Source: Rhizobium sp. ZPR4 (GTDB taxonomy: Bacteria > Pseudomonadota > Alphaproteobacteria > Rhizobiales > Rhizobiaceae). From it: DNA of 64,000 bases. Of the stretch, positions 20,945 to 57,294 are shown in pieces; the stretch's first letter is position 1; every line of letters begins with the position of its first letter. The stretch spans positions 1,240,001-1,304,000 of the forward strand of contig NZ_CP157967.1 of assembly GCF_040215725.1 (NCBI RefSeq), read 5' to 3'. A model generated the notes under the pieces. It worked only from the letters and a program-made list of their open reading frames with translations. It was not told where the DNA came from and made no database searches. The position numbers and the translations under genes are program-made.

Positions 20945-21088
20945 TTAACGGAAAGAACGAGCAGCGATGTTGCGGATTTCGTAGCGGCTGACGCCGATGT
21001 CCGAAAGGGTCTGGCTGGAAAGGTTGCCAAGTTCGTTCAGAGTGCGGCGGTAGCTGATCCAGTTCTTTGCAATGCGAAGCGGGTTCAT
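20945..21088 (-). CDS. DUF1127 small protein (copy 1)
   Basis: A 47-residue Arg-rich protein, MNPLRIAKNWISYRRTLNEL being its first 20 residues, with the DUF1127/YjiS pattern (RRTLNELGNLS...LSDIGVSRYEI). Proteins of this family in alphaproteobacteria have been reported to bind RNA or metabolic proteins and to affect phosphate or stress responses; its role here is unknown. A GAGGACA Shine-Dalgarno sits just before ATG 21088. It has its own promoter (21148-21185) and its own terminator (20892), so it is monocistronic. It is about 45% identical by eye to copy 2. Confidence 0.85.
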   Translation of the reverse strand: MNPLRIAKNWISYRRTLNELGNLSSQTLSDIGVSRYEIRNIAARSFR

Positions 21089-21147: not shown

Positions 21148-21185
21148 CTATATAGGCGCGAGGACGTGATTTGTGCAGTGCAAAG
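21148..21185 (-). promoter_or_regulatory. Promoter of DUF1127 copy 1 with a TGC-N3-GCA box
   Basis: On the minus strand TTGCACTGCACAA (21183 to 21171) is followed by exactly 15 nt and the -10 hexamer CTATAT (21155 to 21150). With a 17-bp spacer the -35 is CTGCAC, inside the box, against the rhizobial consensus CTTGAC-N17-CTATAT. The transcript would start near 21143, about 55 nt before the ATG. The rest of the 305-bp gap to the second DUF1127 gene holds that gene's terminator and nothing else I can name. Confidence 0.5.
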
Positions 21186-21316: not shown

Positions 21317-21355
21317 AAAAAAGAACGCCCGCCGCGGAGGTCCGCAACGGGCGTT
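21317..21355 (-). terminator. Rho-independent terminator of the second DUF1127 gene
   Basis: On the minus strand AACGCCCG...CGGGCGTT (arms 21348-21355 and 21324-21331), with an inner GCGGA/TCCGC stem, is followed by CTTTTTTGCC. It lies 38 bp after the DUF1127 stop. Confidence 0.8.
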
Positions 21356-21393
21356 GAGAAGGCTTTCGCTGAAAGGCGAGGCCTATCCGGCGA

Positions 21394-21540
21394 TTAACGG
21401 CCGGTGGCTTCGCGAGCAACGCGATGGATGTCGGCGCGGTCGATGCCGAGGTCGTGCAGTTCACGCGAGCTCATGCGGCCGAGTTCGTTAACGGTCTGAC
21501 GATACTTGCGCCAGTTGTTGAAAGAGCGGGTCAGGTTCAT
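21394..21540 (-). CDS. DUF1127 small protein (copy 2)
   Basis: A 48-residue basic protein with the DUF1127 pattern YRQTVNELGRMSSRELHDLG then IDRADIHRVARE. ATG 21540 is preceded by GAAAGGGACTACA, a usable Shine-Dalgarno; the longer upstream frame lacks family similarity. It is a paralogue of the gene 305 bp downstream on the same strand. Its upstream region does not carry the TGC-N3-GCA promoter box seen for copy 1, only an AT-rich CATATATTTAAATC near 21610, so the two copies may be regulated differently. Confidence 0.87.
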   Translation of the reverse strand: MNLTRSFNNWRKYRQTVNELGRMSSRELHDLGIDRADIHRVAREATGR

Positions 21541-21969
21541 TGTAGTCCCTTTCGAGGATCTCAGGATCGAGCAGTTCCACAATTGGTTCCGTCGTCGATC
21601 TAATGGATTTAAATATATGCTGCGCCGCGAAAACTAAAAGAGCGAAAGCTTCATGTCACCTATGCATAAGATGCAAGCCTTATAGGCGTTTTGCCTAAGA
21701 TGGCGGCTGCTTTGTGTGCATAGCGCGGCCAAAGGGTGTTTGCCGCAGGAAGTCGATTCCGCGTATGAGCCCAGCGTTCCAGGGCAGTTACCGATGACTG
21801 CCGGCTTTTGGCCACCTTTTCGCCAGCCTTGCTGTTTTGGAAGGGGTCGAATGCTATCGCAAGCTGCCTTCGGTCGGTGGAAAACGATCCCACCAGTCGT
21901 CTACGCCGACATTTGCCAATTGGCTGGTCGCGCATATGTCCAGGCAACATAAACCGATTTAAGTGGGCA

Positions 21970-22166
21970 AAAAATAACGCCCACCGCGGGAGGAGGATGC
22001 GGTGGGCGTCACTTATAGTGATTGACGACTTGGGAGGAGGAGTGTCGTCAATCGATCGGAGCGCATTGGGAGGAGGAGTATGCGGCTCCGAATATCGTGT
22101 CGGGATATCCATCCCCAGGCTTAGTCCGATCTGCATCGGCCCGGCGCGCCACCGCCGTGTTTGTTG
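21970..22166 (-). ncRNA. Predicted anti-Shine-Dalgarno (cuckoo/alpha-r14-type) small RNA
   Basis: On the minus strand three consecutive hairpins each expose the 9-mer CCTCCTCCC in the loop. They lie at 22090-22057 (10 bp with one bulged base), 22053-22020 (10 bp perfect) and 22009-21977 (11 bp perfect); the modules repeat every 33-34 nt. The last one is followed by TTATTTTTT and therefore also serves as the terminator. CCTCCTCCC is complementary to a strong Shine-Dalgarno. Known rhizobial cuckoo/alpha-r14 RNAs and the Rhodobacter CcsR RNAs have this design. The 5' end near 22166 is inferred from the -10 at 22178-22173. The RNA would be about 195 nt. Only the hairpin part is directly supported. 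Confidence 0.75.
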
Positions 22167-22172
22167 TCCAAT

Positions 22173-22206
22173 AAATAGTATGACTTTTCGAATTTGTGCA
22201 GCGCAA
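22173..22206 (-). promoter_or_regulatory. Promoter of the anti-SD RNA, same layout as the DUF1127 copy 1 promoter
   Basis: On the minus strand TTGCGCTGCACAA (22206 to 22194), 15 nt, then CTATTT (22178 to 22173). The box differs from that of DUF1127 copy 1 at one of 13 bases and the distance to the -10 is identical. The implied -35 is CTGCAC in both. Confidence 0.5.
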
Positions 22207-22416
22207 TAATTTCATGGGAGGCATGAGCTCTGCGCATATCTTTTATCGGTATCTCTTTACCGGTCCTAAGGATACTCTATGGTCCGTTAATTCCGTATTA
22301 ATATGGCACATATTCCCGTAGCCGAAGCTTCTACCGGAACTGCGTGGCTCGCATCGATTGTGCGGCGATTTGTGCTAACTCTGTCGCGAGCAGAATCGCA
22401 GCGAGGGGAGCCGGGC

Positions 22417-23556
22417 ATGTACAGAGGCAGGCTGGAGCGGGATCTGAAAATCTGGACCGACAAGGGTCTGGTCGACGCGGGAACGGCGAAAGCCATCCTC
22501 AGCGAGTATGACGGTCGCCAGACAAGTTTCAGCGCTGGCCGGGTATTGACCATTATCGCCGCCGCGCTTTTCGGTCTCGCCATATTGCTGTTCATTTCGG
22601 CAAACTGGGAGGCCCTTCCGAGAATTGCCCGTCTGCTGGGGCTTGTCGCGATGATATGGGGCTTCTATCTCGCAGCCGCCTATTTGCTGGCGCGTGGGCG
22701 TTCCATTCTTGCAGCCGGGCTTTTGATCCTCGGCACCTTGAGTTTCGGCGGCGCGATGGCGCTGGTCGGCCAGATGTACAATCTGTCCGGCGACGAGCTC
22801 AGAATGATGATCGTCTGGTTCATTGCTGCCTGCATCGTCGCGGCGTCGTTTCGGTCCTCGGCGCAGGTCGGGCTTGCCGGCTTCCTCGCCTGGGCATTTT
22901 GCGGCGTCTACCTCTGGGGACATCTCGACGAATGGTATGGCCTGATGCCCTGGATTCCGCCTTTGATGGCCGTGGTCCTGATTGTGCTCGTTCGCTATGC
23001 CGACGCGCCGGCGGCGCGGCATCTGGCCTACCTCATGCTCGTCGGCTGGTTGACATGGCTGTTTGGCCGCCACGAGGAGCTTAATACCGCGATCCTGTTT
23101 GCCGCTCTCGGCATGGCGGCTTTTCTCGTTGTCAGCATTCCCGCTTCGCCGCTGATGCCTTTTGCGCGCACAGCCGGCGCAGCACCAGCCTTCTATGCCT
23201 TTCTTGTCGCATCGATCGGCTTCTTTCTGGTCCATGCCGAAATCAGCAACGGTTCCTTTGAGAATAATGTCTGGATCGAAGATAAAATGCCGCTCGTCAT
23301 CGTGGCGGCGGCGACACTGGCGAGCTCGGTGATTGCCATCGCGCTTAGCGGTCGCGACAATGGCGCGGTGCGCTATCTCGCCTATTTCGTCTTTTCCTGC
23401 GAGATTCTCTATCTCGCCAGCGAGACGATCGGCTCGATCATCGGCACGGCGGGGTTCTTTCTCGTCGCCGGATTGCTTGTGGCGATTGCCGCCTGGCTGG
23501 TCATCCAGCTCGAGCGGCGTTTTTCCGATAATCGCGGGCAGGGGACAGGGGCATGA
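22417..23556 (+). CDS. DUF2157 integral membrane protein
   Basis: A 379-residue protein with the DUF2157 N-terminal cytoplasmic segment (RLERDLKIWTDKGLVDAGTA) followed by about ten hydrophobic segments. Function unknown. The frame is open upstream, but ATG 22417 follows GAGGGGA by 7 nt and matches the family start. The stop overlaps the ATG of the GDYXXLXY gene (ATGA), so the two are translationally coupled, which is how these families usually occur. The region before it is occupied by the minus-strand small RNA. Confidence 0.82.
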   Translation: MYRGRLERDLKIWTDKGLVDAGTAKAILSEYDGRQTSFSAGRVLTIIAAALFGLAILLFISANWEALPRIARLLGLVAMIWGFYLAAAYLLARGRSILAAGLLILGTLSFGGAMALVGQMYNLSGDELRMMIVWFIAACIVAASFRSSAQVGLAGFLAWAFCGVYLWGHLDEWYGLMPWIPPLMAVVLIVLVRYADAPAARHLAYLMLVGWLTWLFGRHEELNTAILFAALGMAAFLVVSIPASPLMPFARTAGAAPAFYAFLVASIGFFLVHAEISNGSFENNVWIEDKMPLVIVAAATLASSVIAIALSGRDNGAVRYLAYFVFSCEILYLASETIGSIIGTAGFFLVAGLLVAIAAWLVIQLERRFSDNRGQGTGA

Positions 23557-24173
23557 CTGATTTGGCTGACGGGAGCGTGGTTGCAAACGGGAATGCCCGC
23601 CGGGTCTGGATCGCCGCCATCGTCGTTGCGGCTCTGCAGACCGCCGTGCTGGGCTACATGGTTGGCGAGCGGGCCTGGGGCCTGCGAAGCGGCGTCGAGA
23701 TTCTCTTGAAGACCGCGCCGGTCGATCCACGCGATCTTCTGCGCGGCGACTACGTGACCTTGAACTACGACATCTCACGGGTTCCGTTCTCGACGATGGT
23801 CGAGGGGCCGCCGAAAATGAGCCAAAGTGCCGCGATATTGTCCGTTCGCCTGAAGAAGCAGGGCGATGGCTACTGGGGGATCGTCGAATCATCCTTCGGA
23901 AAGCTTGAGCCGAAACCCGATACGGTCGTGCTCAAAAGTCTGCCTGTCGATTATGTTTTCTATGGCGATGCCACCGATCCCCAGCAGGTGATTGTTGGAG
24001 TGACTTATGGCATCGAGCGCTACTATGTGCCCGAGGGGCAGGGGCACGATATCGAGATCGCCCGCAACGACAATCGCGTCGCCATTGCGGCGCGGGTGTC
24101 TTCCGATGGCGTTGCCCATATCAGAAGCCTGCTTCTCGATGGCAAATCCGTCTACGAGGAACCGCTTTACTGA
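23553..24173 (+). CDS. GDYXXLXY domain-containing membrane-anchored protein
   Basis: A 206-residue protein with one N-terminal membrane helix (VWIAAIVVAALQTAVLGYMV, about 18-37) and an extracytoplasmic domain carrying the family signature GDYVTLNYDIS near residue 65. Function unknown. It is coupled to the DUF2157 gene by a 4-bp overlap and the two are very likely partners in one membrane complex. No terminator is obvious before tRNA-Leu 145 bp downstream. Confidence 0.82.
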   Translation: MTDLADGSVVANGNARRVWIAAIVVAALQTAVLGYMVGERAWGLRSGVEILLKTAPVDPRDLLRGDYVTLNYDISRVPFSTMVEGPPKMSQSAAILSVRLKKQGDGYWGIVESSFGKLEPKPDTVVLKSLPVDYVFYGDATDPQQVIVGVTYGIERYYVPEGQGHDIEIARNDNRVAIAARVSSDGVAHIRSLLLDGKSVYEEPLY

Positions 24174-50782: not shown

Positions 50783-51970
50783 ATGAAAGACAAAGACACA
50801 TTCCTGCAGAACGCTGGTATCAACACGCGTTTGTCCCACATCGGCAATTCGCCATTCGACTTCCACGGCTTCGTCAATCCGCCGGTCGTCCATGCCTCGA
50901 CGGTGCTGTTTCCCAATGCGCGTGTAATGGAGACGCATGACCAGAAATACACCTATGGCACGCGCGGAACTCCCACCACGGATGCGCTGTGCGAGGCGAT
51001 GGATGCGCTGGAAGGGTCTGCTGGAACGGTCATCGTGCCGTCTGGGCTTGCGGCTGTCACCGTGCCGTTTCTTGCTTATTTGTCAGCCGGTGATCACGCG
51101 CTGATCGTCGATTCGGTCTATGGTCCCACGCGATTCTTCTGCGACACCATGCTGAAGCGCCTCGGCATCGAGGTCGAGTATTATGATCCGTTGGTCGGCG
51201 TCGGCATCGAGCAGATGATCAAGCCGAATACCAGGCTGGTCCATACCGAAGCGCCAGGCTCCAACACCTTCGAAATGCAGGATATTCCGGCGATCTCGGC
51301 TGCGGCTCACCGCCACGGCTGCGTCGTGACCATGGATAATACCTGGGCGACGCCGCTCTATTTCAAGCCGCTCGATCACGGTGTCGATGTTTCCATCCAT
51401 GCCGTGACGAAATATCCGGCCGGTCACTCCGATATTCTGATGGGGACCGTTTCGGCCAATGAAGCGCATTGGAAGCAGTTGATTGACGCGCATGGCCAGC
51501 TCGGCATCTGTGGCGCGCCCGATGACGCTTATCAGGTGCTGCGCGGTCTGCGTACCATGGGCGTGCGCCTGGAGCGGCATCAGGAGAGCGCGCTGGCGAT
51601 CGCCCAATGGCTTGAGGGCAGGGAGGAGGTCGCACGCGTGCTGCATCCGGCCCTGCCGAGCTTCCCGGGTCACGAGCTTTGGAAGCGCGACTTCAAGGGT
51701 GCAAGCGGCATCTTCTCCTTCGTTCTCGCCGTCGACGATCCGCACAAGTTCAAGGTGAAGGCGCATGCCTTCCTGGATGCCTTGCGTATCTTTGGTCTCG
51801 GCTATTCCTGGGGGGGCTTCGAAAGCCTGGCATTGCAGGTCAACCTCAACGACCGGCGCGTGACCAAGATCCCGACGGAGGGGCCGGTGATCCGCCTGCA
51901 GATCGGCCTGGAAGACGTCGCCGATCTCAAGGCGGATATCGAAAAGGGCTTTGCGGCGGCTACCGCATAA
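50783..51970 (+). CDS. metC: Cystathionine beta-lyase
   Basis: A 395-residue PLP enzyme of the Cys/Met-metabolism family that cleaves cystathionine to homocysteine. The PLP-lysine region AVTKYPAGHSDILMG contains Lys210. Other features are YGTRGTPTTDALCEAMDALE and YSWGGFESL near the end. It is transcribed divergently from aapJ. Its position together with hom and cysE in the window fits methionine synthesis, although those genes are not linked in an operon. A cystathionine gamma-synthase role is possible but less likely from the sequence. Confidence 0.9.
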   Translation: MKDKDTFLQNAGINTRLSHIGNSPFDFHGFVNPPVVHASTVLFPNARVMETHDQKYTYGTRGTPTTDALCEAMDALEGSAGTVIVPSGLAAVTVPFLAYLSAGDHALIVDSVYGPTRFFCDTMLKRLGIEVEYYDPLVGVGIEQMIKPNTRLVHTEAPGSNTFEMQDIPAISAAAHRHGCVVTMDNTWATPLYFKPLDHGVDVSIHAVTKYPAGHSDILMGTVSANEAHWKQLIDAHGQLGICGAPDDAYQVLRGLRTMGVRLERHQESALAIAQWLEGREEVARVLHPALPSFPGHELWKRDFKGASGIFSFVLAVDDPHKFKVKAHAFLDALRIFGLGYSWGGFESLALQVNLNDRRVTKIPTEGPVIRLQIGLEDVADLKADIEKGFAAATA

Positions 51971-56833: not shown

Positions 56834-56873
56834 TTGCGACGCACAAGACTACTTGACTAATTGTGCATCGCAT
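56834..56873 (+). promoter_or_regulatory. Paired TGC-N3-GCA boxes in the phasin promoter
   Basis: TTGCGACGCACAA (56834-56846) and TTGTGCATCGCAT (56861-56873) form an imperfect inverted repeat (11 of 13 bp) with 14 bp between. A CTTGAC -35 (56852-56857) lies between them, so the second box falls in the spacer of the promoter. PhaR/AniA-type repressors are known to bind TGC-N3-GCA dyads at phasin genes. It is the same kind of box as at 21171 and 22194. Confidence 0.5.
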
Positions 56874-56928: not shown

Positions 56929-57294
56929 ATGTTCAATTTCGATGAAGCAAACAAGAAGGGCAAGGAAGCCATGGACACGGCGCTGAAGAGCTATTCCGAT
57001 GTCACCAAGGGCTTTCAGGCGATTGCTGCCGAAACCGCTGAATACTCCAAGAAGTCTTTCCAGGATGGCGTTGCACACTTCGAAACGCTCGCCGGTGTCA
57101 AGAGCTTCGAAGCTGCCTTCGAACTGCAGAGCAGCTATGTGAAGTCCTCCTACGAAAACTTCGTCGCTGAAGCCACCAAGCTCGGCGAAATGTATGCCGA
57201 TCTCGCCAAGAATGCCTACAAGCCTTACGAAGCGCCCGTAGCGGCTGCGACGAAGGCTGCCAGCAAGGCAGCAGCAACGGCGACCGCCGCTTAA
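56929..57294 (+). CDS. Phasin family protein
   Basis: A 121-residue amphipathic protein of the phasin family that coats poly-3-hydroxybutyrate granules. Typical features are FDEANKKGKEAMDTALKSYS at the start, long helices with FETLAGVKSFEAAFELQ in the middle and an Ala/Lys-rich tail. ATG 56929 is preceded by GGGACGGAGAAGC. Its promoter region has paired TGC-N3-GCA boxes, and the gene ends in a hairpin terminator. phaC lies about 22 kb away in the window. Confidence 0.9.
   Translation: MFNFDEANKKGKEAMDTALKSYSDVTKGFQAIAAETAEYSKKSFQDGVAHFETLAGVKSFEAAFELQSSYVKSSYENFVAEATKLGEMYADLAKNAYKPYEAPVAAATKAASKAAATATAA

What the first reader, a model, noticed from the sequence alone, without database searches (positions are those of the whole stretch)
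21970..22166. Unannotated three-module anti-Shine-Dalgarno small RNA
Seen directly: on the minus strand CCTCCTCCC occurs exactly three times in 90 bp (rc at 21988-21996, 22032-22040, 22068-22076), each time as the loop of a 10-11 bp stem, with modules of 33-34 nt. The last hairpin ends in TTATTTTTT and so doubles as terminator. Known: cuckoo/alpha-r14 RNAs of Rhizobiales and CcsR RNAs of Rhodobacter have this loop motif, complementary to strong ribosome-binding sites, and the CcsR RNAs are cotranscribed with a DUF1127 gene. Inferred: this is such an RNA, with two DUF1127 genes downstream on the same strand.
Basis: partly seen in the sequence, partly recalled or inferred. Interest (0 to 1): 0.78.

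Follow-up and report, generated by a model that had tools for sequence, protein, structure and literature searches.

The report
Small RNA switched by carbon storage
This stretch encodes a small RNA of a known rhizobial family that blocks ribosome-binding sites; new here are a conserved folded front end and a promoter site that matches the one used by PhaR, the protein that senses stored carbon, so the RNA may report the cell's carbon reserves.

Summary
Window 21972-22096(-) is Rfam ar14 (RF02344, 111.6 bits, cut-off 58.8), the family of Sinorhizobium NfeR1, so the anti-SD module is known. The host is Rhizobium rhizogenes-like, with five ar14 copies. Three points go further. (1) The gene is longer than ar14: a conserved promoter block lies 124-131 nt before the first CTCCTCCC (102 of 103 orthologue loci), followed by a ~75-nt noncoding leader with covarying hairpins. 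(2) TGCGCTGCACAA over the inferred -35 is letter-identical to a footprinted PhaR (AniA) operator. DUF1127-2 and the window's phasin gene carry the same consensus. In 53 other genera such sites are ~49-fold denser upstream of DUF1127/ar14 than elsewhere in the same loci; second, NfeR1-like copies lack them. (3) The locus belongs to DUF1127-ar14 arrays upstream of trmFO (53 of 60 genera fetched). The DUF1127 link is published (CIN1); here the DUF1127 genes have promoter elements of their own. Prediction: PhaR represses this RNA until PHB accumulates; it then silences mRNAs with strong Shine-Dalgarno sites, transporters among them. No transcript and no PhaR binding was measured; only 33 of 56 Rhizobium orthologues keep the strict 12-mer consensus.

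The parts
22223..22237 (-). LysR-type box ATGC-N8-CAT (here ATGCGCAGAGCTCAT), about -57 to -71 from the inferred start
   Evidence: Within one mismatch in 56 of 56 non-redundant orthologues and at constant spacing (31 nt) to the next element in 55 of 56; coordinates. Factor inferred by analogy with LsrB at NfeR1.
22194..22205 (-). PhaR (AniA) operator candidate TGCGCTGCACAA, overlapping the inferred -35
   Evidence: Identical to the footprinted B. diazoefficiens phaP4 site (PMC6201568). Same 12 letters in 25 of 56 orthologues; strict consensus TGCRNYGCASMA in 33 of 56, S. meliloti core in 56 of 56.
22175..22180 (-). -10-like hexamer TACTAT
   Evidence: TCATACTATT conserved in the alignment; sequence motif only, start not measured.
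21969..22167 (-). Inferred small RNA, about 199 nt
   Evidence: From inferred start to terminator.
22142..22157 (-). Leader hairpin a
   Evidence: 94.5% of cells paired, 4 of 5 pairs with changes on both sides.
22126..22139 (-). Leader hairpin b
   Evidence: 96.3% of cells paired, 3 of 5 pairs with changes on both sides.
22102..22116 (-). Leader hairpin c
   Evidence: 72.4% of cells paired; one clade pairs one column over in the alignment. Weakest of the three.
22056..22091 (-). anti-SD hairpin 1 (CCTCCTCCC 22068-22076)
   Evidence: ar14 model; covariation.
22020..22053 (-). anti-SD hairpin 2 (CCTCCTCCC 22032-22040)
   Evidence: ar14 model; covariation.
21969..22009 (-). anti-SD hairpin 3 (CCTCCTCCC 21988-21996) and terminator
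   Evidence: ar14 model and T run; loop shortened to CCUCCCC in the other Rhizobium clade.
21653..21666 (-). Promoter element TGCATAGGTGACAT before DUF1127-1, like that of NfeR1-type copies
   Evidence: Exact match twice in the whole genome. Up to 2 mismatches in 39 of 56 orthologues, 3 in the other 17; controls reach 3 in 15 of 1120 and never fewer.
21394..21537 (-). DUF1127-1, 47 aa
   Evidence: Pfam PF06568, 60.3 bits.
21317..21354 (-). Terminator of DUF1127-1, possible remnant of a second ar14 (weak ar14 match at 21320-21398)
   Evidence: 22.3 bits, E 0.13, below the cut-off.
21171..21182 (-). PhaR operator candidate TGCACTGCACAA before DUF1127-2, followed by CTATATA
   Evidence: Longer element within one mismatch in 56 of 56; strict 12-mer in 46 of 56.
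20945..21088 (-). DUF1127-2, 47 aa
   Evidence: Pfam PF06568, 46.5 bits.

Best explanation
A trans-acting small RNA of about 199 nt (about 22167 to 21969, minus strand): a folded noncoding leader of about 75 nt, then the ar14 domain with three CCUCCUCCC loops, the last stem being the terminator. PhaR bound over the -35 represses it; PHB granules draw PhaR away and relieve repression; a LysR-type factor at about -60 may activate it. The loops pair with strong Shine-Dalgarno sites and block translation, in part of solute-uptake mRNAs, which brakes import when carbon is in store. DUF1127-2 answers to the same kind of operator, DUF1127-1 to another element. Shown here by comparison: family, structure, promoter conservation, operator match, synteny. 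Inferred: transcription start, binding by PhaR and a LysR factor, action of the loops in this strain, and the leader's role (first guess: 5' protection or processing).
For: ar14 above cut-off. Leader helices: 10 of 15 pairs with changes on both sides (shuffles 6.6 +- 1.0, 1 of 500 as high), covariation 0.300 (shuffles 0.176 +- 0.009, 0 of 500; slid versions at most 0.103). Promoter block at 124-131 nt in 102 of 103 loci. Operator identical to a footprinted PhaR site at the -35. TTGCRCTGCACAA occurs 3 times in the 7.7-Mb genome: here, before DUF1127-2 and before a phasin gene. Of 5 consensus sites in the window, 2 are here and 2 in front of a second phasin gene. Family survey: 29 of 32 DUF1127-ar14 units, 14 of 21 RNA-first units and 15 of 28 dispersed copies have the 12-mer, controls 4 of 2440 and 3 of 1920; 81 sites in 46.4 kb upstream against 5 in 140.8 kb elsewhere. 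PHB_acc_N, recalled as a PhaR domain, is encoded in the genome. Loop action: NfeR1 work in PMC10746234.
Against: No transcript, start or protein binding measured. The strict 12-mer holds in 33 of 56 Rhizobium orthologues; 22 have TGCACTGCAAAA instead. 7 of 21 RNA-first units and 13 of 28 dispersed copies lack it; the own copies L001 and L003 have only the 9-mer core and L005 neither. The core is not specific (401 of 2440 controls). Shared ancestry means the counts are not independent. In S. meliloti only one of six ar14 copies was detected by northern. ntrB and other targets were not tested in this genome, and target classes were not set against a genome baseline.
Confidence: 0.66

Rival explanations
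1. An ordinary ar14 copy controlled like NfeR1 (LysR-type activator LsrB, NtrC repression); the PhaR-like palindrome is incidental or bound by another factor, and the leader is only a promoter-proximal relic.
For: A LysR-type box is present at the position NfeR1's has (-72 to -60; PMC10746234). NfeR1 is the only copy with a worked-out circuit in the papers read.
Against: Second copies with NfeR1-like promoters lack the palindrome (0 of 11 within 200 nt), the window copy has it; the palindrome is shared with two phasin genes of the same genome; leader helices covary.
Confidence: 0.2
2. Transcribed together with the DUF1127 genes as one operon, as in Rhodobacter ccaF1-CcsR, the small RNA being cut out of the joint transcript.
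For: Same strand and order in 103 of 103 loci; 32 of 53 other genera have DUF1127 directly before ar14.
Against: A terminator closes the RNA, and each DUF1127 gene has its own conserved element. In the window the RNA precedes the DUF1127 genes. Read-through cannot be excluded.
Confidence: 0.08
3. A poorly expressed relic: the copy is conserved by chance or as a DNA element and has little effect beside the other four copies.
For: Five copies in the genome; in S. meliloti one of six was detected; the third loop is shortened in one clade.
Against: Promoter, helices and loops are kept across the genus with compensating changes.
Confidence: 0.06

Closest known systems
alpha-r14 / NfeR1 (SmelC397, Smr14C2) of Sinorhizobium meliloti, Rfam RF02344
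   Same: Three hairpins with CCUCCUCCC loops, terminator in the last; LysR-type box at about -60 to -72
   Different: NfeR1 is 123 nt (PMC10746234), starts at its first hairpin by the promoter described, and is controlled by LsrB and NtrC; the window copy has a ~75-nt folded leader and a PhaR-type operator
CcsR1-4 with the DUF1127 protein CcaF1, Rhodobacter sphaeroides (RF02791)
   Same: anti-SD loops and a DUF1127 neighbour; 32 of 53 other genera show the same DUF1127-then-RNA order
   Different: CcsR1 model scores 28.1 (cut-off 65.3); CcsR are cotranscribed behind ccaF1 from an RpoHI/RpoHII promoter (PMC10253847); here the RNA comes first
Cuckoo RNA family and CIN1 locus (Reinkensmeier and Giegerich 2015, known only through papers that cite it)
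   Same: Multi-hairpin anti-SD RNAs beside short DUF1127 genes
   Different: The paper is not held; whether it describes the leader or the promoter classes is unknown to me
MmgR (alpha-r8) of S. meliloti
   Same: Small RNA gene under a PhaR (AniA) operator, tied to PHB (PMC12542648)
   Different: 77 nt, Hfq-dependent, filed in another RNA family (PMC7143759); sequence not compared here
SMc02051 of S. meliloti
   Same: Gene about 490 nt beyond the end of NfeR1 with a putative PhaR site, protein up in phbC phaR against phbC (log2 1.51 low P, 4.63 TY)
   Different: That it is the DUF1127 gene of this locus is my inference; its sequence was not read, and its PhaR binding is marked NE in the paper's table

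Membership tests
ar14 (RF02344) | Covariance-model score above the curated cut-off | tested here: met
   111.6 bits, cut-off 58.8, full model 1-123
ar14 (RF02344) | Three hairpins, each with CCUCCUCCC unpaired in the loop | tested here: met
ar14 / NfeR1 sub-type | About 123-nt transcript starting at the first hairpin | tested here: inconclusive
   No conserved -10 directly before hairpin 1, conserved promoter block ~128 nt upstream; start not measured
ar14 / NfeR1 sub-type | NfeR1-type promoter without a PhaR palindrome | tested here: not met
   Palindrome at 22194-22205; 0 of 11 second or third copies have one within 200 nt
ar14 / NfeR1 | Translational silencing through the loops | not testable with these tools
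   Published for NfeR1
CcsR1 (RF02791) | Covariance-model score above the curated cut-off | tested here: not met
   28.1 bits, cut-off 65.3
CcsR / ccaF1 operon | DUF1127 gene directly upstream on the same transcript | tested here: not met
   In the window both DUF1127 genes lie downstream
PhaR (AniA) regulon | Operator of the published consensus in the promoter | tested here: met
   22194-22205; strict consensus in 33 of 56 orthologues
PhaR (AniA) regulon | Regulator encoded in the genome | tested here: met
   PF07879, 108.1 bits; that this domain marks PhaR is recalled
PhaR (AniA) regulon | PhaR binding and PHB-dependent expression | not testable with these tools
   Needs gel shift and mutants

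The most novel reading that the evidence does not exclude
Most ar14 RNAs of Rhizobiaceae and their DUF1127 partners form one PhaR regulon: a carbon-storage sensor switches on multi-loop anti-Shine-Dalgarno RNAs that throttle nutrient uptake when PHB is full. NfeR1, known for nitrogen and LsrB control, is the exceptional copy that left this control, and the window copy is a long form with an extra folded domain.
Probability: 0.5. Interest if true: 0.72.

Novelty: new variant of a known kind. Interest (0 to 1): 0.55.

Why it matters
ar14 RNAs are very common in rhizobia (97 of 101 Rhizobiaceae genomes sampled, 93 of 101 above the cut-off), yet in the papers I read only NfeR1 has a worked-out control circuit. 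A PhaR operator on many of the other copies and on the DUF1127 genes would help explain why several copies exist, tie the RNA to carbon storage, and give the DUF1127 proteins a physiological setting. It is directly testable with S. meliloti phaR and phbC mutants that exist already (PMC12542648).

Tried and rejected
Leader as a small ORF: an RTG lies in the loop of hairpin a, but the first anti-SD motif falls in frames 2, 1 and 0 in 21, 21 and 12 of the 54 sequences scored (2 of 56 gave no start) and ORFs run from 3 to 79 aa, so rejected. Promoter directly before hairpin 1, as in NfeR1: no conserved -10 there. Leader model across other genera: 65 sources gave only the window and 4 weak matches (E 0.03-0.74), though all 4 abut the 5' end of an ar14. 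DUF1127 as a universal partner: 31 of 74 ar14 loci had none in the fetched flanks of 1.5-2 kb. Target functions: only 20 ORFs behind the first 30 of 213 sites were scanned, no baseline. ntrB was not checked.

Rows dropped; 127 of 148 Rhizobium genomes matched; 30 loci were given and I fetched 60 more, so the weakest matches were not examined. The 103 orthologue loci (window, 13 named, 89 unnamed) gave 90 distinct stretches and 56 below 95% identity; L118 was left out of alignments A1 and A2 (55 rows); 97 of 101 genomes have trmFO; I fetched 60 other genera from the top of the score list, passing over G035 (contig edge), G056, G076 and G091, so the survey leans to closer relatives. Of these 60, 7 had no ar14 above the cut-off (L182, L184, L189, L199, L211, L220, L226); L184 and L189 still have two DUF1127 genes. 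Second copies: one search looked 200 nt upstream and found 0 of 11; (260 nt) one of the 11, L236, has the element at -221, before the DUF1127 gene that separates its two ar14 copies. Two of the 11 (L198, L236) follow a DUF1127 gene; 8 of 11 have a -10-like hexamer right before ar14.

Full report
What is there. The minus strand at 21988-21996, 22032-22040 and 22068-22076 carries CCTCCTCCC, each copy in a hairpin loop, the last hairpin followed by TTATTTTTT. Rfam's ar14 model matches 21972-22096(-) with 111.6 bits, cut-off 58.8; CcsR1 reaches 28.1, cut-off 65.3. The neighbouring DUF2157 protein is 100% identical to one of Rhizobium rhizogenes 17-2069-2c, so the host is that species or very near it. 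The genome (7.74 Mb, 7 contigs) has five ar14 copies and ten DUF1127 matches.

Known background. The ar14 founder is NfeR1 of Sinorhizobium meliloti: 123 nt, three redundant anti-SD loops, silencing of SMc03121, SMb20442 and ntrB, activation by LsrB and repression by NtrC (PMC10746234; abstract, sections 3, 5 and 8 and passages read). S. meliloti has six copies, of which one was detected by northern (PMC7143759, passages). One family with a varying number of anti-SD hairpins was proposed in 2011 (PMC3927594, one section and passages). [quoted passage not shown] So the anti-SD module and its neighbourhood are not new. In S. meliloti another DUF1127 gene is controlled by attenuation through an upstream ORF (PMC12218461, abstract, sections 6 and 8 and passages); the passages name no NfeR1.

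The locus in the genus. The 181 bases from the first anti-SD hairpin to the promoter match 127 of 148 Rhizobium genomes. I compared 103 orthologue loci. All 103 have the array (two or three exact CTCCTCCC) and two DUF1127-like ORFs downstream on the same strand; 102 have the promoter block 124-131 nt before the first CTCCTCCC, L118 did not fit the pattern. Between promoter and array lies a leader of about 75 nt. In 55 sequences its three small helices show 10 of 15 pairs with changes on both sides (shuffles 6.6 +- 1.0, 1 of 500 as high) and a covariation score of 0.300 (shuffles 0.176 +- 0.009, 0 of 500; slid versions at most 0.103). Helix c is the weakest, 72% of cells paired, because one clade pairs one column over. 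The anti-SD stems covary too. The reading frame is not kept. The inferred RNA runs from about 22167 to 21969, about 199 nt, unlike NfeR1.

The promoter. Order: a LysR-type box ATGC-N8-CAT, 31 nt later TTGCRCTGCANAA, then TCATACTATT. The box is within one mismatch in 56 of 56 non-redundant orthologues and at that spacing in 55; the second element is within one mismatch in 56 of 56, both before the RNA and before DUF1127-2; of 1120 reversed control windows none comes that close. DUF1127-1 has a different element, TGCATAGGTGACAT, within two mismatches in 39 of 56. In the whole genome TTGCRCTGCACAA occurs three times: here, before DUF1127-2, and before a gene with the Phasin_2 domain. Its core here, TGCGCTGCACAA, is the very sequence that PhaR protects from DNase I in the B. 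diazoefficiens phaP4 promoter, where it overlaps the -35 (PMC6201568, passages). The consensus TGCRNYGCASMA from that paper occurs five times in the window (1.30 expected, 1 of 100 shuffles reach five): here, before DUF1127-2, twice before a Phasin_2 gene at 56929-57294, and once inside an ORF. In the genome it occurs 140 times, 42 for the reversed pattern. A PHB_acc_N protein, the domain that I recall as PhaR's, is encoded. Against a simple reading: the same 12 letters occur in 25 of 56 orthologues, TGCACTGCACAA in 5 and TGCACTGCAAAA, which departs from the consensus, in 22.

The family survey. Of 60 other genera fetched upstream of trmFO, 53 have ar14 there, one to three copies, and all 53 have DUF1127 on the same strand. 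In 32 a DUF1127 gene precedes the first ar14, in 27 of them by 5-23 nt counted from the end of the profile match, as in ccaF1-CcsR. In 21 the RNA comes first, as in the window. Alternating orders (L198, L225, L227, L236) connect the two. In Rhizobium, 25 of 26 orthologues of one clade keep a YCCTCCC hairpin just after DUF1127-1 (15 with CTCCTCCC), and 0 of 30 of the window's clade (sequences); in G028 a stretch there matches ar14 with 33.9 bits, E 3.8e-4, below the curated cut-off. This fits a lost second copy. PhaR-consensus sites lie upstream of 29 of 32 DUF1127-ar14 units, 14 of 21 RNA-first units and 15 of 28 dispersed copies without DUF1127, against 4 of 2440 reversed windows and 3 of 1920 shuffled ones. 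Second or third copies have 0 of 11 within 200 nt; one of them, L236, has the element at -221, before an intervening DUF1127 gene. In the 53 loci there are 81 sites in 46.4 kb upstream of DUF1127 or arrays and 5 in 140.8 kb elsewhere. The 9-mer core is not specific (401 of 2440 controls). Among the own copies, L004 has the consensus, L001 and L003 only the core, L005 neither. Shared ancestry means that these counts are not independent trials.

Support from a relative. In S. meliloti, SMc02051 has putative PhaR sites, the first at 1667000-1666980, and its protein rises in phbC phaR against phbC (log2 1.51 in low P, 4.63 in TY); its PhaR binding is marked NE in the table (PMC12542648, abstract and passages). 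NfeR1 lies at 1667613-1667492 on the same strand (PMC7143759). I infer, without having read its sequence, that SMc02051 is the DUF1127 gene of this locus. A link between PhaR and NfeR1, ar14 or DUF1127 I did not find: the search for these names gave 7 papers, and the passages I saw in them speak of AniA with MmgR or AbcR, not with NfeR1. Most subscription papers are not in the library.

Targets. The genome has 213 GGGAGGA-N4-9-ATG sites, 18 for the reversed pattern. Of the first 30 listed by position, 20 ORFs were scanned: five are periplasmic or solute-binding proteins and one is an ABC ATPase. Ten were not scanned (five very short frames, three cut by the locus end, two left out). This agrees with the published NfeR1 targets, but no genome baseline was made.

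Mechanism. PhaR sits on the -35 and keeps the RNA off; PHB draws PhaR away; the RNA is made and its three loops cover strong Shine-Dalgarno sites, slowing import when carbon is in store. DUF1127-2 answers to the same kind of operator. The leader's role is open; my first guess is 5' protection or processing, perhaps with a DUF1127 protein, since CcaF1 takes part in CcsR maturation in Rhodobacter (PMC10253847). The steps up to 'the RNA is made' rest on operator identity and conservation, the later ones on the published behaviour of NfeR1.

Noticed in passing
window 56835-56872 and 56929-57294 (+): A phasin gene (Phasin_2, 89.4 bits) with two PhaR-consensus sites 26 bp apart in front of it, an internal positive control for the operator.
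   Followed up: partly
G000:C1:308553-308585 (L268): Second Phasin_2 gene whose promoter has two PhaR-consensus sites, one of them TTGCACTGCACAA.
   Followed up: partly
L004 and L005 (own genome, C5 and C2): Two ar14 copies have a fourth anti-SD hairpin in front; L005 lies behind a DUF1127 gene, L004 between ligD and imuA-like genes on a plasmid-sized contig.
   Followed up: partly
L222, L224, L231, L237 and others: Tandem arrays of up to three ar14 copies (nine anti-SD hairpins) directly behind DUF1127 genes.
   Followed up: no
window 22303-24173 (+): Divergent DUF2157 and GDYXXLXY genes next to the sRNA promoter; searching with the DUF2157 protein found the array beside it in 13 of 13 named loci.
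   Followed up: no
window 51621-51629 (-): A fourth isolated CCTCCTCCC far from the locus, no repeat of the motif nearby seen.
   Followed up: no
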